A stretch of 24,409 nucleotides of DNA. Origin: a virus. Positions 2,527 through 24,409 of the stretch are shown piece after piece. How positions within the stretch are numbered: the first letter of the stretch is position 1; each line of letters begins with the position of its first letter. The position numbers were made by a program, and so were the translations under genes. A model generated the notes under the pieces. That model was not told the DNA's origin. It ran no database searches and worked only from the letters and a program-made list of their open reading frames with translations. Where the stretch lies: positions 1 through 24,409 of IMG/VR virus record IMGVR_UViG_3300027965_000181; one strand, written 5' to 3'.

Positions 2527-2964
2527 TTAAAGTGACTTCTCAAGAAGGACCCGGGTGAGTCGGTAATCGGGTAAAGCGCGCACCCAGCCGCGGCGCCCGT
2601 GGATACGCATTGCGGCGCAGCCTTCGGCCTTGGCGTAGGCTTCGAGCGCGGATTTGAGATCGAGCCAGCGGGTGCGCTCGCGCCCGCCGCAGGCCACGAT
2701 GGTGCAGAATTTCTCGCCCGCCACATAAGCGATCTGCGTCACCGCTGCGGCCCAGATCGTGCCGGGATCAGCGACGACCCAGAGCAGCGCTTGCCCGTCC
2801 AAAACCGCGCGCTCCACATCGGCGAATTCCGAGATGCGGCCCTTCACCATCGCGGCGCGGATGAGATGCGCGACGAGCGGCCAGACGCGGTCGACAAAAC
2901 GCGGGTCGATGCAGATGCAGATTGGACTTTCCCCACGGTCATCCTCGCGAAAGCGGGGAGCCAT
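2527..2964 (-). CDS. GNAT-acetyltransferase-like phage protein
   Basis: The conserved part runs from about 2922 (ICICIDPRFVDRVWPLVAHL) through AVLDGQALLWVVADPGTIWA, AAVTQIAYV and FCTIVACGGRERTRWLDL to AEGCAAMRIHGRRGW. It resembles the small GNAT-fold proteins found beside the nozzle and adaptor genes of rhizobial podophages. Catalysis is not demonstrable by eye. The only in-frame ATG nearby is at 2964, inside a palindromic repeat, giving the non-native-looking leader MAPRFREDDRGESP. The repeat has evidently replaced the original start region. The Shine-Dalgarno-like AGGGA there is only about 3 bases from the ATG, so expression may be impaired. It sits 16 bases before the split gene starting at 2510. 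Confidence 0.65.
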   Translation of the reverse strand: MAPRFREDDRGESPICICIDPRFVDRVWPLVAHLIRAAMVKGRISEFADVERAVLDGQALLWVVADPGTIWAAAVTQIAYVAGEKFCTIVACGGRERTRWLDLKSALEAYAKAEGCAAMRIHGRRGWVRALPDYRLTRVLLEKSL

Positions 2965-3361: not shown

Positions 3362-3380
3362 TTCGAAATGCTCACAGTTC

Positions 3381-3469
3381 CGGTCACCCCCGCGAAAGCG
3401 GGGGTCCATACACCTCGATCCATCGAGAGGACGTTGACTATGGGTCCCCGCTTTCGCGGGGACGACCTG
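3381..3469. repeat. Palindromic interspersed repeat
   Basis: Two inverted arms, ggtcacccccgcgaaagcgg and gggtccccgctttcgcgggg, flank a short spacer in the gap between the nozzle gene and the 104-residue gene. This is the cleanest copy of the family in this window. A stray half-unit (gcggggatgaccg) follows near 3490-3501. Confidence 0.85.
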
Positions 3470-5958: not shown

Positions 5959-5972
5959 GATTGCTCCTATCC

Positions 5973-6059
5973 GTCGTCCCTGCGAAAGCAGGGACCCATA
6001 CGCCTCGCCCTCTCGGTCGCGCGTAGCGGTATGGATCCCGGGTCAAGCCCGGGACGACG
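5973..6059. repeat. Palindromic interspersed repeat
   Basis: Arms gtcgtccctgcgaaagcagg and atggatcccgggtcaagccc...gggacgac occupy the gap between two phage genes (upstream stop at 6078, downstream start at 5958). Confidence 0.8.
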
Positions 6060-8760: not shown

Positions 8761-8838
8761 CCGGTCGTCCCCGCGAAAGCGGGGACCCAGATCGCGAGGG
8801 CGTAGCCGTATGGGCCCCTGCTTTCGCAGGGGCGACGG
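8761..8838. repeat. Palindromic interspersed repeat
   Basis: Arms ggtcgtccccgcgaaagcgg and gggcccctgctttcgcaggg lie in the gap between the capsid gene stop (8851) and the tail-fibre-like gene start (8706). Confidence 0.85.
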
Positions 8839-9855: not shown

Positions 9856-10088
9856 CCGGTCACCCCCGCGAAAGCGGAAGTCCAGTCCACTTCGAAAAAA
9901 GCATTCTTGCGAAGGAACTGGCTCCCCGCTTTCGAGCGTGTGAAGGAATCGCCTCTCCGGTCGTCCCGGCAGGAGCGAAGCGGAGAGCCGGGACCTTCGG
10001 GCAACATGAGAGGGCGCAGCGGTATGGGTCCCTGCTTTCGCAAGGACGACCGGGAATTTCTTCACACGCTCTTTCGCGAGGACGACGG
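9856..10088. repeat. Tandem array of palindromic interspersed repeats
   Basis: About 230 bases between scaffold and capsid genes hold at least three related elements: ggtcacccccgcgaaagcgg, ggtcgtcccggcaggagcga and gggtccctgctttcgcaagg, plus a terminal tttcgcgaggacgac unit. The scaffold-capsid gap in most phages is only tens of bases, so this is an inserted array. Confidence 0.8.
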
Positions 10089-14485: not shown

Positions 14486-14905
14486 TTACTGCAGCTCGAG
14501 GATGCCGTTGACGGCGTCGGGCTGGACCTGGAACGAGTTGCCCGAGGTCACATTGACCTCGGCTCCGTAATCCCACCAGCCGATCAGGTTGCCGCTCGCC
14601 GCCGTCGAGTTGTAGATGACCGCATAGCGGAACTGCGCAATCGACCCGCCCGAGGCCGTGAAGGTCACGTTGTTGCCCATGAGCTTGTAGAGACCGCTCG
14701 TCTGGCTCGAGCTCGTGATCGTGACTGCCGTGCCGCCGGCCGTATAGCCGTTGCCCGCGGCGATCTCGGTGATATTCGCCTTGACGGTGTTGCTCGCGCT
14801 CGGCGCCGTGTCGGTCAGCATGATCTTGAGCGTGTCGGAGCCCAGATTGTGCACCTTGTTGGCGATGTCGGCGACGAACTGATTGAACTTATTGAACGAG
14901 GCCAT
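14486..14905 (-). CDS. Small conserved phage virion protein
   Basis: This encodes 139 residues from the ATG at 14905 (MASFNKFNQFVADIANKVHN). A second ATG sits directly upstream at 14908, but GGAG is better spaced for 14905. The gene overlaps the 3' end of the portal gene by 17 bases. The protein contains a helical start with NLGSDTLKIMLTDTAPSASN, then a beta domain (NITEIAAGNGYTAGGTAVT, YKLMGNNVTFTASGGSIAQF, RYAVIYNSTAASGNLIGWWD) ending SFQVQPDAVNGILEL. This 'F..DLA...H.L.SDTLK..LT' protein is common beside portal or capsid genes of many phages and appears to be a virion component, perhaps surface-exposed. Confidence 0.8.
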   Translation of the reverse strand: MASFNKFNQFVADIANKVHNLGSDTLKIMLTDTAPSASNTVKANITEIAAGNGYTAGGTAVTITSSSQTSGLYKLMGNNVTFTASGGSIAQFRYAVIYNSTAASGNLIGWWDYGAEVNVTSGNSFQVQPDAVNGILELQ

Positions 14906-17306
14906 CATTGACTCCGTTTGGTGCTGAGAACGGCGCTGGCGACGGCGGCACCGGCATGGGCGACACCGGCGCAAGCGGGATCGGCTCGACATGGCTAACG
15001 CGGCCTTGCGCATCGCGGACCACGCGCTTGGGCGCATTCATCTGCCGCAGCATGTCCATCAGCGTGGCGACGAGAGCCGCGGCACCGGGATTGCCGGGCG
15101 TGGGTCCATCCTGGCCCGCACCGCCGGCCGTGGCTCCCACTGCGGCCTGCAGATGGCGGAACTGTTGATCGCGCAGCGCGAGCTCGTGCTGCAGCAACGC
15201 CATCTGCCGGTCGAGCTCGAAGCGCTGCTGCGCCAGCGCGGCATCGCGCTGCGCCTTGCGCTCCTGCAAAGCGAGCTGCCCCTGCGCCTGCTGGGCGTCG
15301 AGCTGCGCTTGCGTCTGGATTTGCATGAGCTTCGGATCGGGCTGAGGTTGCGGCGGGGCTTGCGTCTTCGGATCGGTGAAGAATTGATCGACCGTCTTGA
15401 GATCAACGAGCTTCACCACCTCGGCGGCGGAATTGTAGAGATTCTGCACGCTGACCAGATTGGTGAGCCCGCCGGCCAGAGCTTCCTTCTGCAGGTTGAT
15501 CACCGCCATCACATGGGCGAGCCGCTCCGACTTGCCGCCGGTGCCCAAGCCCACATTGATGGTGAGATCATTGCGCTGCTTCCAGTCGCGCGGATCGACC
15601 GTGACCCATTGATTGCGCAGCCGCACCGTCGCTGCTTCCGCTCCGTGCTTGCGGATCGTGGCGTGCAGAAGCGAGAACAGGTCGCGGATGCCGGTTTCGG
15701 CAAAGATGCGCGCGATCAGCTTCATGCGCGCTTGCGCGGCGTTGTAGACCTGCACGGCGGCGGTCGCTGACGTATTCTGCAGCGCATTGGCATCGAGCCC
15801 CTGCGCCTGCCGGTTGACGCCGGTGCGCCACTCGCGGGTCGCATCCGCGTATTCGAGCACCGGGAAAATCTCGCCGGCTATCGCCGGCACCGTCTGCCAG
15901 TTCACGCCGCCCGGCATCTTGGTGCGGACGATGCCGCCCGGCCGCGAGACCAACAGATCATCGAGCGTGGTCTCGGTCGCGTGCGCTTCCGACACTTCGA
16001 CCCGCGGATTGACCGCCAGATAGGCGTTGTCGAGGATCGAGCGGATGAGCGCCGTCTTGATGCGCTGAATGTCCATCACCAAGTCGGCAATGGAGCGGCC
16101 GAAAAAGCGGTGACTTACGATCACCGGCGTCATGGCGGCGAATGGCACCATGTCGACCTGCACGATCTCGAGCTCGCCGTCGCGCTTGAGCACCTCGCCC
16201 TGGTCGCCGCCGGTGGTCACCCGGTAGAGCGCGGGCTTGTTGTTGCCCTCGTAATCCATGCGCACATAGTGCTCGGTGATCTTGATCTGGCGATTGACCT
16301 CGTTGAGGCCCTCATCGCCGCCGGCGACGAGATGTTCATCCACCGTGTCGCGCGCCAATTCCTCCGGATTGGTGAGCATCGCGTAGGTCGGGATTGCTTT
16401 GACCTGCGTGCGGTCGTAGCCGGCCGCGATCAAGTCCTCCTCGCGTTTGATCACCTCGTGGAAGCAATAGCCGCAGTCCTTGAGGCTTCTGGCAAATCGC
16501 GAAATGCCGAACTCCTCGGGCGGCACGCCCTCGACGCGCGCCTGCGCGACGGTCTTGCGGGTAATGACGGTGACGTCGTGCAGCATGGGCACGCGTGAAA
16601 CCTCATCATCCTCAGCATCGTTGCCTGCCGCTACGGCCGGTGCAGCCGCCGGATTTGTTGTGGGTGCGGCCGGCGCGGTTGGCGCACCAACCCCGGCATT
16701 GAACGTTGTTGCGCCGTCGCTCGGCGGCACCGCAGCACCGGCTAGCAGCCCGACGGTTGCTTGAGTGGCCTGATAGGCCGGGTCGGGATGCTGGCTGTGC
16801 CCGACGATCTCGATATTCGGATTGGCGGCAAGGATAGCAAACGCGTCGTCGCTCTGGTCGAGATAGGTCTCGCGGGTCTCCTCCTCGCGCTCCTCCCACC
16901 ATACCTTGACGATGCCGACTTTCGAAAGCAGCGCGTCCTTGATGAAGGAATAGAGAATGAGGAAGCCGGGATTCTGCTGCATGAACACATGGTTCACGTA
17001 GTCGGTTTCCTGCTCGGCAGCCGCCACATCCTCCGGCCCGAACGGCTCGAAGCGCACGACCTCGTCGGAGCCCGCAAAGATCTCCATGAGCGAGGGCATC
17101 AGCCCTTCGATCGTGTCGGCGACATCGGAAGAGACCGCCTGCGAGCGCCCATCCTGCGCCGGCATGTCGGCTGCCATGTCGCCGTTGTAGTAGTCCATGG
17201 CGCGGGTGCGCTCGGCCGAGAGCTTGGACGCGCGCACGGCGGCGAGCGCATCCATCTTCTCCGCCGCAAGCATGGCCTGCAGCTCGGACGGCGACATTTT
17301 TGGCAT
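14889..17306 (-). CDS. Portal protein (head-to-tail connector)
   Basis: This encodes about 805 residues starting MPKMSPSELQAMLAAEKMDA. Recognisable blocks are AMDYYNGDMAADMPAQDGRS, ADTIEGLMPSLMEIFAGSDE, TDYVNHVFMQQNPGFLILYS, FIKDALLSKVGIVKVWWEER, SRFARSLKDCGYCFHEVIKR, FFGRSIADLVMDIQRIKTAL, LDNAYLAVNPRVEVSEAH, LVSRPGGIVRTKMPGGVNW, and in the C-terminal barrel RQAQGLDANALQNTSATAAV. The last 200 residues are a Gln-rich coiled coil (QLDAQQAQGQLALQERKAQR). Length and blocks match portals of SU10/P22-like podophages. The longer start at 17357 is possible but lacks conserved content. Two terminators lie 55-150 bases upstream. No terminase precedes it, which is unusual. Confidence 0.9.
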   Translation of the reverse strand: MPKMSPSELQAMLAAEKMDALAAVRASKLSAERTRAMDYYNGDMAADMPAQDGRSQAVSSDVADTIEGLMPSLMEIFAGSDEVVRFEPFGPEDVAAAEQETDYVNHVFMQQNPGFLILYSFIKDALLSKVGIVKVWWEEREEETRETYLDQSDDAFAILAANPNIEIVGHSQHPDPAYQATQATVGLLAGAAVPPSDGATTFNAGVGAPTAPAAPTTNPAAAPAVAAGNDAEDDEVSRVPMLHDVTVITRKTVAQARVEGVPPEEFGISRFARSLKDCGYCFHEVIKREEDLIAAGYDRTQVKAIPTYAMLTNPEELARDTVDEHLVAGGDEGLNEVNRQIKITEHYVRMDYEGNNKPALYRVTTGGDQGEVLKRDGELEIVQVDMVPFAAMTPVIVSHRFFGRSIADLVMDIQRIKTALIRSILDNAYLAVNPRVEVSEAHATETTLDDLLVSRPGGIVRTKMPGGVNWQTVPAIAGEIFPVLEYADATREWRTGVNRQAQGLDANALQNTSATAAVQVYNAAQARMKLIARIFAETGIRDLFSLLHATIRKHGAEAATVRLRNQWVTVDPRDWKQRNDLTINVGLGTGGKSERLAHVMAVINLQKEALAGGLTNLVSVQNLYNSAAEVVKLVDLKTVDQFFTDPKTQAPPQPQPDPKLMQIQTQAQLDAQQAQGQLALQERKAQRDAALAQQRFELDRQMALLQHELALRDQQFRHLQAAVGATAGGAGQDGPTPGNPGAAALVATLMDMLRQMNAPKRVVRDAQGRVSHVEPIPLAPVSPMPVPPSPAPFSAPNGVNDGLVQ

Positions 17307-17359: not shown

Positions 17360-17398
17360 AAAAAGCCCGGCGCGGTTTCTCGTCCGCAATCCGGGCTT
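17360..17398 (-). terminator. Rho-independent terminator
   Basis: Read on the minus strand, an AAGCCCGG...CCGGGCTT stem with an inner GCGG/CCGC extension is followed by TTTTTG. It is the second of two tandem terminators in this copy of the boundary repeat. Confidence 0.8.
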
Positions 17399-17424: not shown

Positions 17425-17457
17425 AAAAAACCGACCTCGAGGCACTCCCGAGATCGG
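17425..17457 (-). terminator. Rho-independent terminator
   Basis: On the minus strand, CCGATCTCGGGAG...CTCGAGGTCGG forms a stem with one G-T pair, followed by TTTTTTG. It is the first terminator encountered by transcripts leaving cassette 2. Confidence 0.8.
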
Positions 17458-17538
17458 CTCACACTTCTCAAGTTTCAATTTCGTGAATAGTCTGATTTGC
17501 GGAACTGTGTCAAGCGCGATGTATCGAATTCGCGAAGA

Positions 17539-17896: not shown

Positions 17897-18179
17897 TCAT
17901 CGACCGAGGAACCTGCTTGCGTCCGACTGCGCACGGCGGGGCAGCGCAGTCAGGCCTTCCGTCTCGCCGATAGTTCCAGTTGCGATTGCATGGAGCTGCT
18001 TCAGGTTAGTCTGCTGTCTGGTCCACTCACGAAGGGATGCGAGCGAATCCTCTCCTCTTCCTTTCGATCAAAGCGAGCGTTGGGATTCTGCGCGCTGACA
18101 AATTCATGAAGAGCATCGTTCGCATGCCTCGCCGCCCGGTACCAACCACGTCCACGACCTGAAGATTATCCAAGCTCAT
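17897..18179 (-). pseudogene. Chimeric immunity remnant: DUF6572 start joined to DUF416 end
   Basis: The ATG at 18179 encodes MSLDNLQVVDVVG, matching the first residues of the DUF6572-like gene at 18967. The sequence then switches, at about 18137-18144, to DNA nearly identical to the 3' half of the DUF416-like gene (20867-21110), ending at the equivalent TGA at 17897. The DUF416 part is out of frame and carries a further 7-base deletion near 18029. No functional product is expected. It is a recombination scar showing that parts of cassette 1-type immunity DNA were once linked here. Confidence 0.8.
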
Positions 18180-18534
18180 GATCCTGGCTTCCTGAGACTC
18201 CTTTCTGCGCGTTCCCGAGCCGAAAGCGCAGCGAGAAGCCGGCATCTTGAATTGTCTTCCGCGCCAAACCAAAAAAACTTTCTGCCTCGCCGCTCAGCGG
18301 ATATTTTTCAACCAGGTTTATGACTACCGGCCGTCCTCTGGCTTCCGGTATATCGCGATACATCTGCCCGCCCTCGATAAAGGCCAAGTAAGTGTTCATT
18401 TTGGCCTGAAGCAGGAGTAAGTGGGCACCCTCGTCCTCGTCCCAGCTGAGGTGATCGCTGATCGTAAGCAGCACGTCTCCGGTTGCATATTCGATGTGCA
18501 CGAAATCGATCTTGTCTGTCTGATCAATCGACAT
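18166..18534 (-). CDS. Second DUF6572-like putative immunity protein
   Basis: This encodes 122 residues starting MSIDQTDKIDFVHIEYATGD. It has VLLTISDHLSWDEDEGAHLL, LLQAKMNTYLAFIEGGQMYR, DIPEARGRPVVINLVEKYPL and a C-terminal helix (SGEAESFFGLARKTIQDAGF). The overall plan (beta hairpin, 'W....EH...LQ.K.N.YL.FIE.GQ.Y', 'R.V.I......') matches the 106-residue gene upstream, with low identity, so it is a diverged paralogue. Its stop overlaps the start of the chimeric remnant by 14 bases. It lies in the trailing array after the cognate immunity gene and is probably an orphan immunity gene. Confidence 0.75.
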   Translation of the reverse strand: MSIDQTDKIDFVHIEYATGDVLLTISDHLSWDEDEGAHLLLLQAKMNTYLAFIEGGQMYRDIPEARGRPVVINLVEKYPLSGEAESFFGLARKTIQDAGFSLRFRLGNAQKGVSGSQDHELG

Positions 18535-18646: not shown

Positions 18647-18967
18647 TCAAATTACCTTTTGCGTCAGGGCAATATTGAACTTTGCGACAATAGCGGCTGC
18701 TTCCTTGAGGAACGCGAGTCCCTCCTTCGGCATCGGAAACCGGCTCAGGATATCGATCCGCAATATTCTTCCGCTGGCGTTCGGATAGTCTTCATAGATT
18801 TGGCCAGATCCAACAAACTCCAGATAGGCATTGATCTTCTCCTGGAGAGCGTACAGGTGCTCGTGCGGATCGTGCCAATCCCACGAGTCGAGAATGTTAA
18901 GAACAACGGTCGTCCCGTCCTTTGTCGTACTCGCGGCATCTATGACTCGAATATTGTCCAAGCTCAT
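18647..18967 (-). CDS. DUF6572-like putative immunity protein, partner of the nuclease toxin
   Basis: This encodes 106 residues starting MSLDNIRVIDAASTTKDGTT. It contains VVLNILDSWDWHDPHEHLYA, LQEKINAYLEFVGSGQIYED, YPNASGRILRIDILSRFPMP and AAAIVAKFNIALTQKV. This is the typical sequence of the DUF6572 family, small proteins frequently coded right after toxin C-terminal domains. The start overlaps the stop of the nuclease toxin domain by four bases (ATGA), the usual toxin-immunity coupling. It looks intact. Binding and inhibition of the toxin are inferred, not shown. Confidence 0.85.
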   Translation of the reverse strand: MSLDNIRVIDAASTTKDGTTVVLNILDSWDWHDPHEHLYALQEKINAYLEFVGSGQIYEDYPNASGRILRIDILSRFPMPKEGLAFLKEAAAIVAKFNIALTQKVI

Positions 18968-19442: not shown

Positions 19443-19823
19443 CTAGAATAGCCCCGCCAAGGCGCGCCCAGGACTCGGCAGCGGTTCGGCGGTCGATGTG
19501 TTGGTTGATGCTTGGGGCGCGAAGGATGATGGGCGCCCGCTGTAGTCCGGAGTTTCCAACAATCCGGGCACGGCCAGGGCGCTCGGAAATCCACCTGTCG
19601 GCGCCGCAGTGGTCTGGCTGGGTGGCGGGCCGAGGTCTCTGAGCCCCTCGAGAATTCCTGCGTAAGGTGTCTGGCCTGGCTGCGTCCCGAGGTACCTCAG
19701 CGACTCAAGAATCCCGCCACGCGGAATATCTGGCCCAGGCAACTGAGGCGGCGGCCGCCCTCCATACGGATCGCCGAACTTGAAGCCCGGCGCATTCGGA
19801 AAGATGGGCGGAGCCCAAGCCAA
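19443..19823 (-). CDS. Fragment of cassette 2 delivery region (WAPP-FPNAP segment)
   Basis: This open frame from a TTG at 19823 reads AWAPPIFPNAPGFKFGDPYG, then GRPPPQLPGPDIPRGGILES, LRYLGTQPGQTPYAGILEGL and RDLGPPPS, ending RALAGLF. It is nearly identical to the corresponding piece of cassette 1. The frame is closed upstream by the one-base deletion and downstream by a frame change, so it is a middle fragment of the broken cassette 2 gene rather than an independent protein. No good ribosome binding site precedes the TTG. Confidence 0.5.
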   Translation of the reverse strand: MAWAPPIFPNAPGFKFGDPYGGRPPPQLPGPDIPRGGILESLRYLGTQPGQTPYAGILEGLRDLGPPPSQTTAAPTGGFPSALAVPGLLETPDYSGRPSSFAPQASTNTSTAEPLPSPGRALAGLF

Positions 19824-20097
19824 GGGGCCGACCGCGCTCGCCGGGATTTGGGACCAATAAGCAGTGAACGGTCGGGCGGCGGTGGGCCAACAGGTGCGGC
19901 GGCGCTCGCGTTAGTTTGTCCGCCGAGTGATACGCTTCCTGGATTCGGATTTGTCTGCGGGGCTCCGGCGATCCAATCGTCGGGAAGGCTATCGTCGCTT
20001 CCCAGATCGATCCAATCATCCGGATCATCGGTGCCGTCCGCGAGCTTGCCGAGCACGGTCCATTGATTGACCATTGCTGCACCGCTGAGGCTGAAAT

Positions 20098-20130
20098 GAA
20101 AAAGGGCCCCGTTGGGGGCCCTTGGTTTTT
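20098..20130 (-). terminator. Rho-independent terminator just upstream of the cassette 2 start codon
   Basis: GGGCCCC-CAAC-GGGGCCC followed by TTTTTC on the minus strand; the other strand also ends in a T-run (ggtttttttt-like), so it may act both ways. It lies about 25 bases before the ATG at 20074. Identical placement occurs in cassette 1 at 22961. Confidence 0.85.
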
Positions 20131-20253
20131 TTCGCTCGCATGAATACGCGCCGGAATTGCCGGCAGAACCGGCTGACTGCTGTCAGGCGCGTTTCATGGC
20201 GGATTGGCGATTAGGCAATGGAAGGCATGGCGCTGGCCGTAGCCTCCACGCAC

Positions 20254-20410
20254 GCAAAGGCCCAGCGCGGTTTTCATTCCGCAGACCGGGCTCGGGCAGG
20301 TTTCAACGATCAAGCAACAAAACCGACCTCAAGGTGCTCCCGAGATCGGCTCACACTTCGCGAGTTTCAATTTCGTCAATAGTCTGATTTGTGGAATCGT
20401 GTCAAGCGCA
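20254..20410 (-). repeat. Cassette-boundary repeat, copy 2
   Basis: This is similar to 17359-17518 and 23119-23274, ending in the same gtgtcaagcgc. Here the distal hairpin is degraded (20257-20292: GCCCGG facing CTGGGC with only three T). The proximal hairpin is intact. Confidence 0.85.
20316..20349 (-). terminator. Rho-independent terminator
   Basis: Minus-strand stem CCGATCTCGGGAG...CTTGAGGTCGG followed by TTTTG. It ends transcription leaving cassette 1. Confidence 0.7.
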
Positions 20411-20866: not shown

Positions 20867-21481
20867 TCATCGACCGAGGAACTTGCTTGCGTCCGACTGA
20901 GCACGGCGGCGCAGTGCAGCCAAGCCTTCGGCCTCGCCGATAGTTCCGGTCGCGATTTCATGAAGTTGCCTCAGGTCAACCTGCTGCCTGATCCACTCCG
21001 CTTTTACAAGGGGATGCGAGCGAATCCTCTCCTCTTCCTTTCGATCAAAGCGAGCGTCGGGCTTCTGCGCGCTCACAAATTCATGAAGAGCATCGTTCGC
21101 ATGCCTCGCCGCCCAGATCGCGGACTGAATATCGGATTTCAGTAATGTTTCGATCGCATAGACGGCCGAGCTCACAGCATCTTCCGCGTAATACGCGAGT
21201 CCGTCGAAGTAGTCATCCTCTTCGGGTAGCAAGCTCATGCAGGCGTCGAGCCGCTCCCGCAGTTCACCAACCGCCGCGCGGCGCGACTCGAGACCGGCCC
21301 AAAGGCAACTCAGCGCGCGAACAAGGATTTGCGAATTGCCTTTGTGAGCTACCTTTGAGTAAGGAGCATAGTTTTCAACTTGCCTTTGCGCACATGCGGC
21401 CGCGAAAGCCGTTCGTAGTCGATTGGGCAGTGGCTGGAGTTGCCGCAGCAACTCCTTCTCGTCGTAGTGCGGGGTCGGCAT
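20867..21481 (-). CDS. DUF416/YjaG-like putative immunity protein, partner of the deaminase-like toxin
   Basis: This encodes 204 residues from the ATG at 21481 (MPTPHYDEKELLRQLQPLPN), preferred because GAGGTG stands 5 bases upstream. It is almost entirely helical: RLRTAFAAACAQRQVENYAP, LVRALSCLWAGLESRRAAVG, EDAVSSAVYAIETLLKSDIQ, AIWAARHANDALHEFVSAQK and HPLVKAEWIRQQVDLRQL. This follows the plan of the DUF416/YjaG family ('FA.AC.ER..PNY..F......G......L...W', acidic 'PEEDD' block here MSLLPEEDDYFDG, 'A..A..A....L'), a family often found after toxin domains. It begins 3 bases after the toxin stop at 21484. It appears intact while the toxin gene is broken. Confidence 0.8.
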   Translation of the reverse strand: MPTPHYDEKELLRQLQPLPNRLRTAFAAACAQRQVENYAPYSKVAHKGNSQILVRALSCLWAGLESRRAAVGELRERLDACMSLLPEEDDYFDGLAYYAEDAVSSAVYAIETLLKSDIQSAIWAARHANDALHEFVSAQKPDARFDRKEEERIRSHPLVKAEWIRQQVDLRQLHEIATGTIGEAEGLAALRRRAQSDASKFLGR

Positions 21482-21483
21482 GC

Positions 21484-21849
21484 TCACCTCAGAGGAGGAA
21501 ATATGGCGGTGGTCTTGCTGGTCAGGACTCCATTTCGAGATTCTATAGCATCTCGGCAACTCCGGCAGATCGGCCGTGTCGTTGCGAGCGCTCTAGGCGT
21601 CAGACCGGCGTTATCCGCTTCGTTGAGAGCCGTGATTTCTCCGTGCGCGCCCGGCAGTTTACCTGCTTGCTCGTCGGATCGTAAGATCGATATCTGCTCG
21701 GGAGTTAAGTCCCGCTTGCCCCCAGCTATGATCGTAGGCCCGTCAGTGCTGAGCGCCACGGTCGTCCGCAGTTTTTTTGGAATCCAGCTTAGCGCGCCAT
21801 GAATTTGATTCGCCCTCTCCGACAAGGCGGCCAATTCCCCTTGGACCAA
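21484..21849 (-). CDS. C-terminal toxin domain, zinc-dependent deaminase-like
   Basis: The open frame encodes 121 residues from a TTG at 21849, which is probably not a natural start but the toxin part of the longer broken gene. It contains IHGALSWIPKKLRTTVALST, GPTIIAGGKRDLTPEQ, then GAHGEITALNEADNAGLTPR and ALATTRPICRSCRDAIES. H69-x-E71 and C95-x-x-C98 match the H(A/C)E...CxxC zinc site of the cytidine-deaminase fold, here with Gly in the middle (HGE). The 'GAH.E..AL..A...GLTPRALATTRPIC..C..AIE' block is familiar from polymorphic toxins. Substrate (nucleic acid or nucleotide) is unknown. The DUF416-like gene follows after 3 bases. Confidence 0.7.
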   Translation of the reverse strand: MVQGELAALSERANQIHGALSWIPKKLRTTVALSTDGPTIIAGGKRDLTPEQISILRSDEQAGKLPGAHGEITALNEADNAGLTPRALATTRPICRSCRDAIESRNGVLTSKTTAIFPPLR

Positions 21850-22729
21850 GAAATTTTAATGCGTTCGCGGGAGGAGCCAGGAACGCAGCGACCGTACGCG
21901 CCCAGGGCTCTGCCGCCGTGCCCTTGGTGAGCTGGCCTGCTGTTTCAGCAGACAACGCGGGTACAAGCCCGTGGCGCAGTGCCCTCGCCGCGAATGATCC
22001 TTCTGGTACGAGCATCGCACCCGGCAGAAATTCGCCGACGGTCTGGGCGTAATCTCCGGGAACTGTCTTGGGTTGGTAGAACGGACCGGTGAACGACTCG
22101 ACTGCGTCCTGGATCTGCGCAGAGGTCGGTCCGGCGAGAAGTGGATTCCAGGCTAGGGCCAGTTGGTTTGTAGCCAAAAAGTCGGAGGCCTTGGCCCCGA
22201 TATTCGGAGCCAAGCCGGGAGCCAGATAATCCGCCGCCTTCTGCACTTCGGTGCCGATGGCTTCGCGTAAGTCGCCCCCCAACCCGAGGAGATGGATCAC
22301 GCCACGGCCGGTCCCGATGCCGAAGGACTTGGCCACGTCGCCGGCGATCTCACCTGTCGAGTAATCCGCCAGCGGCCTGCGCGCATCTGAGGCCGCGGTC
22401 GGCGTGCTTGTTGATGCTTGAGGACCGAAGAATGCTTGGGGCCAGACGTAGTCGAAAGTCTCCGACAATCCGGGCACGGCCGACGCGCTCGGGATTCCAC
22501 CATTCGGCGCGGCGAAAGCTTCGGCGGGTGGCCGGCCGAGGTCTCTCAGTCCCTCGAGTATTCCGGCGTACGGCGTCTGCCCCGGTTGCCTGCCCAGATA
22601 TCTGAGCGACTCGAGGATCCCGCCGCGCGGAATGTTTGGCCCGGGCAGCTGAGGCGGCGGCCGCCCTCCATAGGGATCGCCGAACTTGAAGCCCGGCGCG
22701 TTCGGAAAGACGGGCGGGGCCCAAGCCAA
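21743..22729 (-). CDS. Delivery region of cassette 1 toxin protein
   Basis: This is 328 residues if begun at the TTG at 22729, though the frame is really a continuation of the leader interrupted by the TGA at 22760. Residues 1-115 are Pro/Gly-rich (FPNAPGFKFGDPYGGRPPP, then GILESLRYLGRQPGQTPYAG repeated as GILEGLRDLGRPP). Residues 125-290 form the conserved block: SFGIGTGRGVIHLLGLGGDL, QIQDAVESFTGPFYQPKTVP, GDYAQTVGEFLPGAMLVPEG, ALSAETAGQLTKGTAAEPWA. I recall similar 'TGP.Y.P.T..G.YA.T.GEF.P.A' blocks in Rhizobiales prophage virion proteins. The last 30 residues are frameshifted nonsense (DSKKTADDRGAQH). Confidence 0.7.
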   Translation of the reverse strand: MAWAPPVFPNAPGFKFGDPYGGRPPPQLPGPNIPRGGILESLRYLGRQPGQTPYAGILEGLRDLGRPPAEAFAAPNGGIPSASAVPGLSETFDYVWPQAFFGPQASTSTPTAASDARRPLADYSTGEIAGDVAKSFGIGTGRGVIHLLGLGGDLREAIGTEVQKAADYLAPGLAPNIGAKASDFLATNQLALAWNPLLAGPTSAQIQDAVESFTGPFYQPKTVPGDYAQTVGEFLPGAMLVPEGSFAARALRHGLVPALSAETAGQLTKGTAAEPWARTVAAFLAPPANALKFLGPRGIGRLVGEGESNSWRAKLDSKKTADDRGAQH

Positions 22730-22759: not shown

Positions 22760-22936
22760 TCAATAGGCGGCGAATGGATCAGGCGGCGGTGCGCCAACAG
22801 GCGCAGCCGCGCTCGCGTTTGTTTGCACGCCGATCCAAGCATCTCCCGGATCATCTGGATTCGCCGCCGGCGCAGCCGAAATCCAATCATCGGGAAGGCC
22901 GTCGTCGATTCCCGGCTCGGTCCCATAATCGGCCAT
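22760..22936 (-). CDS. Leader peptide of cassette 1 toxin gene, ended by a Trp-to-stop change
   Basis: A 58-residue open frame reads MADYGTEPGIDDGLPDDWIS, then AAPAANPDDPGDAWIGVQTN and ASAAAPVGAPPPDPFAAY. It has strongly acidic, low-complexity sequence with the PDDWI and DPFAAY motifs. Short 'DPF.AY'-like repeats at the N-terminus are common in large internal proteins of rhizobial phages (recollection). The ATG is 25 bases downstream of a terminator and has only a weak ribosome site (AGCGGTG). Confidence 0.6.
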   Translation of the reverse strand: MADYGTEPGIDDGLPDDWISAAPAANPDDPGDAWIGVQTNASAAAPVGAPPPDPFAAY

Positions 22937-22960: not shown

Positions 22961-22985
22961 AAAAAGGGCCCCGTTGGGGGCCCTT
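22961..22985 (-). terminator. Rho-independent terminator just upstream of the cassette 1 start codon
   Basis: Minus strand GGGCCCC-CAAC-GGGGCCC plus TTTTTC. It sits 25 bases before the ATG at 22936, in the same place as the cassette 2 copy at 20098. Confidence 0.85.
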
Positions 22986-23119
22986 GGTTTGCTTGCTCGG
23001 ATGATGACGGCCCGGCATTCGCCGGCGGAAATCAGCTATGGGGTGTCAGATCGGTTTCATGGCTTTGTGTTGGTTGACGAATGCAAGAGGCCGGCACGAC
23101 TTTACGTTTGCGTCCATGC

Positions 23120-23155
23120 AAAAAGCCCGGCGCGGTTTCTCCGCAATCCGGGCTT
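23120..23155 (-). terminator. Rho-independent terminator
   Basis: AAGCCCGGATTGCGG...CCGCGCCGGGCTT followed by TTTTTG on the minus strand. Confidence 0.85.
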
Positions 23156-23181
23156 CAGACAGGCTTCACCAAACAAGCAAC

Positions 23182-23216
23182 AAAAAGCCGACCTCAGGGC
23201 GCTCCCGAGATCGGCT
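23182..23216 (-). terminator. Rho-independent terminator
   Basis: AGCCGATCTCGGG...CCCTGAGGTCGGCT followed by TTTTTG on the minus strand. It is the stronger of the tandem pair. Confidence 0.85.
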
Positions 23217-23298
23217 CACACTTCGCGAGTTTCAATTTCGTCAATAGTCTGATTTGCGGAATCGTGTCAAGCGCGGCGCCTCATTGAAGATAGCTCGC

Positions 23299-23404: not shown

Positions 23405-24409
23405 TTAAAACTGCATCAGATCCTTCGCGACCAGCACCTCGCCCGAAAACTGCTTCTTCACCGCATCGGCATAACGCGCGTAGTCGTCATTGGGGTCGGG
23501 CGTCGCCGACAGATGCGTGAGCACCACAGTCTTGACGCCGGCACGGCGCGCGATCTCGCCGACCTGCTCAGGCGTGATATGCTCTTCGCGCATGTGGCGG
23601 AGGAAGCCTTCCTGCTCGGCCTGAGTGAGCGTGTCCCACTGCCCCGCCTTGATCCTTTGCGCCTTCACATCGTCGAGGGAGGTGACCTCCGATACGAGCG
23701 TATCGGCGCCCGTGGCAAGATCGACCACGGCATCGCTCGGTCCGGTATCGCCGGTGAACACGATCACCCGGTCGGGCGTCTCGAAGCGGTAGGAATAGGA
23801 TTTGTATTTGCCGAAGGCCGGGCTGCCGGGCGGGAAATGGAAATGCGTGTTTTCCGCCGCCGTCACCTTGATGTTGTGGTCCTGGAAGACGACGCCGGTG
23901 CCGACCTCGTGCGCAAAGAAGAGTTGCGCGGCCGGGATGGTGTTGTTGCCGTCGCTGATGCGAATGTCGGAATTGACGGTGAGGTAGGCGAGAATTCCGC
24001 GGAAGATCGCCTCGGTGCCGGGCGGCCCATAAATGTTCACCGGCTTGGTGCGGCTGAGGTCATACTGCGCGCTCAGGAGCGACGCCAGCCCGCTGGTGTG
24101 GTCGCTGTGCGGATGGGTGATGAAAATGGCGTCGATATTGCGAATGGCAATTCCCGCCCGATTGAGGCGCCGCGTCACGCCGTCGCCCGCATCAATGACG
24201 TAGAGCGCACCATTGACGGTGAGCAGGTTGGAGCTCTGCGCCCTGCCGAGGCCAGGCCGCGGCCCGGCGCGCGTCCCCAGTGTGATGAAATGCGTGCCGG
24301 TTTTTGCAGGCACCGCCGGCGCGCTCTGTTGCGCCAATCCGGCTCCGGTCGCGATCGCCGCCCAAAGCCCAATCGTGCAAGCAAGCAGTGACATTGAACG
24401 GCTACGCAT
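23405..24409 (-). CDS. Exported metallo-beta-lactamase-fold hydrolase, probable host gene
   Basis: This encodes 334 residues if started at the ATG at the window edge; an ATG five codons later (MSLLACTIGLWAAIATGAGL) is equally likely, and the true start could lie outside the window. Residues 6-27 look like a signal peptide, so the enzyme is probably periplasmic. The metal-binding motif HPHSDH (H99, H101, D103, H104), a second-site D221 in VIVFTGDTGPSD and H299 in VVLTHLSA follow the order of RNase Z/arylsulfatase-like members of the MBL superfamily. The substrate cannot be told. It has no phage character and marks the chromosome side of the region. Confidence 0.85.
   Translation of the reverse strand: MRSRSMSLLACTIGLWAAIATGAGLAQQSAPAVPAKTGTHFITLGTRAGPRPGLGRAQSSNLLTVNGALYVIDAGDGVTRRLNRAGIAIRNIDAIFITHPHSDHTSGLASLLSAQYDLSRTKPVNIYGPPGTEAIFRGILAYLTVNSDIRISDGNNTIPAAQLFFAHEVGTGVVFQDHNIKVTAAENTHFHFPPGSPAFGKYKSYSYRFETPDRVIVFTGDTGPSDAVVDLATGADTLVSEVTSLDDVKAQRIKAGQWDTLTQAEQEGFLRHMREEHITPEQVGEIARRAGVKTVVLTHLSATPDPNDDYARYADAVKKQFSGEVLVAKDLMQF

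What the first reader, a model, noticed from the sequence alone, without database searches (positions are those of the whole stretch)
20098..20130. Terminators sit 25 bases upstream of both toxin start codons
In both cassettes a strong GGGCCCC hairpin with a T-run ends about 25 bases before the ATG, behind two further terminators. Little room remains for a promoter. Expression would need antitermination (as for phage late genes), an attenuation switch, or a promoter inside the hairpin region. The portal gene also follows two terminators closely.
Basis: partly seen in the sequence, partly recalled or inferred. Interest (0 to 1): 0.6.

Follow-up and report, generated by a model that had tools for sequence, protein, structure and literature searches.

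The report
Late promoters blocked by immediate terminators
Three phage gene blocks here, two toxin cassettes and the portal gene, each begin with a promoter running straight into transcription stop signals, a layout shared with many related soil-bacterium phages, suggesting these genes stay silent until a phage or host protein lets RNA polymerase read through.

Summary
The hairpins are real. On the minus strand a GGGCCCC hairpin with a T-run ends 24-27 nt before each toxin ATG, behind one or two more terminators. So the order is promoter, terminator(s), gene.

The layout is widespread. In Bradyrhizobium phage-like clusters, 109 of 130 related promoters run into a terminator, and 129 of 130 point along the phage genes (portal, capsid, terminase). 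In other phages with the same portal family the promoter class overlaps or follows the end of an uncharacterised gene sitting where lambda keeps Q. That protein family matches DUF6456, the family of GafZ, the Caulobacter GTA antiterminator (profile match 96.8%). All nine Bradyrhizobium genomes tested carry one DUF6456 gene.

Best reading: late-gene control by Q/GafZ-type antitermination, each toxin cassette carrying its own copy of the leader. Shown: architecture, conservation, homology. Inferred: that the promoter fires, and that the protein acts here, through CAAATCA. The window encodes no such protein, and both toxin reading frames are broken.

The parts
23242..23270 (-). Promoter of cassette 2 leader: -35 TTGACA 23270-23265, spacer motif CAAATCAG 23256-23249, -10 CTATTG 23247-23242 (17 nt spacer)
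   Evidence: joint best of 6.15 kb; same class in viral contigs
23181..23217 (-). T1 of cassette 2 leader (stem 23217-23185 and T-run)
   Evidence: -24.9 kcal/mol; d +37
23120..23153 (-). T2 of cassette 2 leader
   Evidence: -24.0 kcal/mol; d +13
22961..22985 (-). T3, the GGGCCCC hairpin of cassette 2
   Evidence: d +45
22760..22936 (-). First open stretch of the cassette 2 toxin-like gene, ATG 22936 to an in-frame TGA after 58 codons
21484..22729 (-). Rest of the cassette 2 toxin-like gene in two frames (21743-22729 and 21484-21849); weak deaminase match at its end
   Evidence: PF00383 E 0.017, below cut-off; L008 relative E 0.0019
20867..21559 (-). DUF416 protein, presumed immunity partner
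   Evidence: E 1.4e-15; role inferred from position
20377..20405 (-). Promoter of cassette 1 leader: -35 20405-20400, CAAATCAG 20391-20384, -10 20382-20377
20316..20352 (-). T1 of cassette 1 leader
   Evidence: -19.7 kcal/mol; d +10
20253..20291 (-). Decayed T2 of cassette 1 leader: hairpin kept, U-tract lost
   Evidence: d -34.9
20098..20123 (-). T3, the GGGCCCC hairpin of the finding
   Evidence: d +42
19697..20074 (-). Start of the cassette 1 toxin-like gene, ATG 20074; leaves the homologous frame (continued at 19443-19823)
18647..18967 (-). DUF6572 protein of cassette 1
   Evidence: E 1.8e-30
18166..18534 (-). Second DUF6572 protein of cassette 1
   Evidence: E 4.1e-32
17485..17513 (-). 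Promoter of portal leader: -35 17513-17508, CAAATCAG 17499-17492, -10 CTATTC 17490-17485
17425..17460 (-). T1 of portal leader
   Evidence: -21.7 kcal/mol; d +33
17360..17396 (-). T2 of portal leader
   Evidence: -22.8 kcal/mol; d +22
14889..17306 (-). SU10-type portal protein, ATG 17306
   Evidence: PF23899 E 2.6e-194; start by alignment with L006

Best explanation
Each leader is a late promoter followed at once by intrinsic terminators, a switch of the lambda pR'-tR' type. A host sigma70-type RNA polymerase starts at the promoter and is stopped about 50 nt later at T1; T2 and T3 are back-ups. Late genes are expressed only when a processive antiterminator loads on polymerase at the promoter, probably through the CAAATCA motif between -35 and -10, and carries it through all the hairpins. 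The likely antiterminator is a DUF6456/GafZ-family protein encoded outside this 24 kb fragment. The toxin-immunity cassettes sit between repeats of the leader, so each came under late control. Shown here: anatomy, conservation, strand and gene context, homology of the Q-position protein to DUF6456. Inferred: that the promoter is active, that termination happens, and that the DUF6456 protein antiterminates at this motif.
For: Three leaders with the joint best promoters of 6.15 kb directly before terminators. In related promoters a terminator follows in 109/130 copies near phage genes against 21/78 elsewhere (Fisher 2e-16), and 129/130 point along the phage genes, ahead of capsid, terminase, portal. 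Hairpin pairs covary: 92% paired, 19 double changes, 0/500 shuffles. In L008 the first 55-58 nt (promoter and first transcribed bases) are kept while the hairpin sequence differs but is still a terminator. A gene family found by protein homology is followed by a hairpin-T-run in 16/19 loci (control 6%); a DNA-only search with the shared promoter pattern returned to genes of that family in 15/26 hits and to terminators in 17/26. That family matches DUF6456, 96.8%, E 2.8e-10; GafA is DUF6456 and GafZ is reported as antiterminator with a site between -35 and -10.
Against: No expression data. No DUF6456 or known Q gene in the window. The CAAATCA-containing spacer also occurs in Bradyrhizobium promoters of ordinary genes without terminators and resembles a host repeat, so it may not be antiterminator-specific. 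In most Q-position loci the motif overlaps the regulator's coding end, so part of its conservation could be protein-level. GafZ's reported site is a palindrome; this motif is not. The -10 is weak. Both toxin frames are broken.
Confidence: 0.6

Rival explanations
1. Leaky attenuators without a dedicated protein: the promoters are constitutive and a fixed small fraction of polymerases passes T1-T3, setting a low dose of toxin and structural proteins.
For: The promoter class is shared with ordinary host genes; one of the three cassette 1 terminators has decayed; no regulator in the window.
Against: Two or three strong terminators in series would leave almost nothing, yet capsid and portal proteins are needed in bulk; the Q-position gene family is tied to the same promoters.
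Confidence: 0.15
2. Small-RNA genes: promoter plus T1 makes a short RNA of about 50 nt with its own function, and the downstream genes are read from elsewhere or silent.
For: A promoter and a terminator 50 nt apart look like a small RNA gene; the elements are multi-copy.
Against: The element stands before late genes in a fixed orientation; no other good promoter precedes the portal gene here; the transcribed part differs between groups and no Rfam family matches.
Confidence: 0.08
3. Insulators: the hairpins, T3 above all, end transcription coming from upstream genes on both strands, as in classical phage morons, and have no switch role.
For: T3 scores as a terminator on both strands and is found only at the cassette starts of the window.
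Against: It does not explain T1 lying about 18 nt downstream of a conserved promoter in more than a hundred copies. It may well be true of T3 alone.
Confidence: 0.12
4. A decayed relic: the toxin frames are broken and the cluster is a remnant, so the leaders no longer regulate anything in this genome.
For: Both toxin frames interrupted, T2 of cassette 1 decayed, no terminase recognised here.
Against: Leaders are more alike (90.6% between portal and cassette 2) than the toxin-side duplicate as a whole (74.8% over 939 nt); portal, scaffold and capsid genes are intact. The lesions could be sequencing errors in a metagenome contig.
Confidence: 0.05

Closest known systems
Lambdoid late module pR'-tR' with Q (PMC6606751)
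   Same: Strong promoter before late genes, terminator soon after, regulator gene just upstream in relatives, candidate binding site between -35 and -10.
   Different: Q families not found; one copy per phage in lambda, up to five per contig here; T1 sits about 18 nt from the predicted start.
Caulobacter GTA control by GafY/GafZ (PMC11150451)
   Same: DUF6456-family protein, alphaproteobacterial phage-like cluster, site between -35 and -10, sigma-like helix-turn-helix.
   Different: There the terminator lies after the first gene and GafZ has one target promoter; its site is a palindrome (GCGCCCG-CTGGCGC); here terminators are immediate and the promoters many.
Pseudomonas aeruginosa AlpA at alpB and PA0807 (PMC7969949)
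   Same: Terminators 26 and 247 bp after the PA0807 start, both before the first gene; binding element between -35 and -10; more than one target locus for one regulator.
   Different: The AlpA motif GGGACGN5GGTA is absent from the spacers here; AlpA homology was not tested.
Phage morons
   Same: Extra genes inserted between phage genes with their own promoter and terminators.
   Different: Here the terminators lie between promoter and gene, and the promoter copies the late promoter of the portal gene.

Membership tests
Q-type late antitermination module (works like) | Promoter directly upstream of late genes | tested here: met
Q-type late antitermination module (works like) | Intrinsic terminator between promoter and first gene | tested here: met
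Q-type late antitermination module (works like) | Recognition site embedded between -35 and -10 | tested here: inconclusive
   CAAATCA at a fixed place in coding and non-coding settings, but also in host promoters without terminator
Q-type late antitermination module (works like) | -10-like pause element in the first transcribed bases | not tested
   GAAAT is conserved about 9 nt after CAAATCAG; no pause test possible
Q-type late antitermination module (works like) | Antiterminator gene next to the promoter | tested here: inconclusive
   Met in relatives (16/19); absent from the window
Known Q protein families (PF06530, PF03589) | Family member in the phage | tested here: not met
   (window, six viral records, five hosts); PF06323 control silent, so inconclusive
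DUF6456 / GafZ superfamily (the Q-position protein of relatives) | Profile homology over the domain | tested here: met
   96.8%, E 2.8e-10, 119 columns
[quoted passage not shown]
   First five structural rows are sigma domain 4, but Z only 4.7-5.5
DUF6456 / GafZ superfamily (the Q-position protein of relatives) | Antitermination activity | not testable with these tools
   Needs transcription assays
AlpA regulon | AlpA binding motif GGGACGN5GGTA in the spacer | tested here: not met
   Spacer read directly: CGATTCCGCAAATCAGA
Leader attenuator / riboswitch | Known RNA family in the leader | tested here: not met
   No Rfam match at gathering threshold

The most novel reading that the evidence does not exclude
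DUF6456/GafZ-like proteins are the late antiterminators of a large group of alphaproteobacterial phages, a Q-equivalent with its own promoter code (TTGACA-N8-CAAATCAG plus immediate terminator). The GTA regulator GafZ descends from them, and copies of the promoter-terminator leader were multiplied so that separate late units and captured toxin-immunity cassettes all answer to one antiterminator.
Probability: 0.42. Interest if true: 0.8.

Novelty: new variant of a known kind. Interest (0 to 1): 0.62.

Why it matters
If true, it names the missing late-gene regulator for many uncultured soil phages and Bradyrhizobium phage-like clusters, links the GTA regulator GafZ to a phage relative in lambda Q's gene position, and gives a short DNA signature that predicts late promoters. 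It would also explain how phage-borne toxin cassettes stay silent in lysogens: each carries its own blocked late promoter. All steps can be tested with reporters in laboratory strains.

Tried and rejected
A promoter between T3 and the ATG or between T2 and T3: none conserved. Translation through T3: the frame is open in both copies but has no start codon upstream. Known structured RNA: none; tRNA: none. Known Q families: none; PF06323 gave no answer, since its control was silent. My first strict hairpin finder missed bulged stems (12 of 89) and was replaced by folding. Exact T3 and exact window promoter in viral contigs: no hits. Close relatives of the window portal among 391 genomes of the host family: none above 64% identity. 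Q-position protein by tblastn in GenBank phages: no match; in solved structures by sequence: nothing usable; Foldseek against PDB: nothing significant, and no known Q or AlpA structure appeared in the second look. The Q-position family itself was not found in the Bradyrhizobium genomes (no positive control); DUF6456 was.

Full report
What was checked. All features are on the minus strand. A GGGCCCC hairpin (T3) with a T-run ends 24-27 nt before ATG 20074 and before ATG 22936. ranks the leader hairpins above every other terminator-like site in 19.4 kb. Terminator d-scores are positive for all except T2 of cassette 1, whose U-tract is gone.

Each leader opens with TTGACA-N17-CTATT(G/C) at 23270, 20405 and 17513; these tie for the best promoter score among 6.15 kb of minus strand. 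T1 begins about 18 nt after the predicted start and would give an RNA of about 50 nt. T2 follows about 60 nt later, and T3, only in the toxin cassettes, some 250 nt after the start. The leader is a repeat: 160 nt at 90.6% identity between the portal and cassette 2 copies and 82% between portal and cassette 1. The order is promoter, terminators, gene.

Cassettes. The unit between leaders holds a toxin-like gene with a weak deaminase match at its end and DUF416 or DUF6572 proteins, which I take as immunity partners by their place (inference). Among relatives with 82-88% identical portals, L006 has two leaders in tandem and no cassette, L008 one cassette between two leaders, and the window two cassettes between three leaders. 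This suggests gain and loss by recombination between leaders (inference). Both toxin frames in the window are interrupted, so their expression may be moot here.

Is the architecture general? The related promoter TTGACACGTCGGGCAAATCA was found in 59 viral stretches and 98 genome stretches, mostly Bradyrhizobium. Of 208 distinct copies collected with a looser form of the motif, 130 have a hairpin directly before a T-run, control 6%. With phage structural genes on the same locus it is 109 of 130, otherwise 21 of 78. All but one of the 130 point along the phage genes. Downstream genes are capsid, small terminase, large terminase, portal and a small membrane gene. Copies outside phage context include ones before host genes such as a nitroreductase, without terminator. 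The hairpin's inner stem changes on both sides while staying paired, and 56 of 57 non-redundant copies fold at -10 kcal/mol or lower.

A candidate antiterminator. In L009, L014, L015 and L026, phages with the same portal family, the gene just before the promoter-terminator and the packaging genes encodes related 180-206 aa proteins (in L014 one small gene lies between). A search by protein alignment added relatives. In 16 of 19 distinct loci a hairpin-T-run follows, control 6.4%. In 13 of 19 a TTGA(C/T) box followed 6-10 nt later by an AAT(C/A)A motif lies there, control 1.4%. These sequences are related and the motif overlaps the end of the coding frame, so the counts are not independent. The reverse test used DNA only: TTGAC-N8/9-CAAATCAG-N8/9-GAAAT over all viral contigs gave 26 copies, 15 of them at a gene of this family and 17 with a terminator; about five look like chance hits. 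The pattern was drawn from these phages and the window, so copies already in hand are among the 26. In L335 and L332 the promoter is separated from the regulator-like gene, and in the window, L006 and L008 no such gene is present, so the motif is also kept in non-coding DNA.

Identity of that protein. PHROGs calls it unknown (14 of 19 members match phrog_15385). A profile comparison with a diverse DUF6456 set gives 96.8% probability, E 2.8e-10 over 119 columns; with Bradyrhizobium DUF6456 alone it was only 60.9%. The predicted structure (pLDDT 79.9) has weak matches, the first five all sigma-factor domain 4, and a viral DUF6456 protein among the predicted-structure matches. GafA homologues are annotated DUF6456 (PMC9638019; PMC9765227). 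GafZ shows sequence similarity to GafA's C-terminal domain, has a sigma-like helix-turn-helix, and is reported as an antiterminator (PMC11150451). L014 also has a DnaA-type DNA-binding protein (PF08299), like the small gene described before gafA in Hyphomicrobiales. All nine Bradyrhizobium genomes tested carry one DUF6456 gene; in four it lies 12-16 kb upstream of the promoter cluster on the same strand, with ordinary genes in between and, in the one I tested (L288), a GcrA-family gene next to it. Whether that gene controls the cluster is not shown.

Weighing. The architecture, its orientation and its terminators are solid. The reading as antitermination rests on comparison with Q, AlpA and GafZ and on gene position, not on any measurement. 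The spacer motif as loading site is plausible but weakened by host promoters that share it. For the window itself the regulator is unseen.

Novelty. I found no paper describing multi-copy promoter-terminator leaders in these phages or a phage DUF6456 protein in the Q position; the library holds only open papers, so this is not proof of novelty.

Noticed in passing
window 22760-22936 and 19443-20074: Both toxin-like genes are broken: cassette 2 has an in-frame TGA after 58 codons and a later frameshift, cassette 1 changes frame. Sequencing error cannot be excluded.
   Followed up: partly
L006 1490-1905: Two leaders in tandem directly before the portal gene with no cassette between them, as expected if a cassette was lost by recombination between leader repeats.
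   Followed up: partly
L288-L291 (Bradyrhizobium): The phage-like cluster lies 12-16 kb downstream of a DUF6456 gene, the latter beside a GcrA-family gene in L288, on the same strand in four genomes; possibly a domesticated, GTA-like element.
   Followed up: partly
L146, L157, L188, L195, L205 and others: The same promoter sequence, without terminator, stands before a nitroreductase-like gene in eight Bradyrhizobium loci; a host promoter subtype or repeat with a conserved spacer.
   Followed up: partly
L014 3322-3801: A small DnaA-type DNA-binding protein (PF08299) lies about 1.6 kb upstream of the Q-position gene, recalling the GafY-GafZ pair.
   Followed up: partly
window 2935-2963, 3380-3408, 5970-5998, 8761-8789, 9856-9884: Copies of a REP-like palindrome (GGTC.CCCCGCGAAAGCGGGG.CCA) sit between the late genes, in both orientations.
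   Followed up: no
window 20175-20200 and 23040-23065, minus strand: Between T2 and T3 both toxin leaders keep GCCATGAAAC......CTGACA, a possible four-codon open frame (MKPI, MKRA).
   Followed up: no
window 23405-24409: A metallo-beta-lactamase-fold gene with an apparent signal peptide at the contig edge looks like host sequence; no terminase gene was recognised in the window.
   Followed up: no
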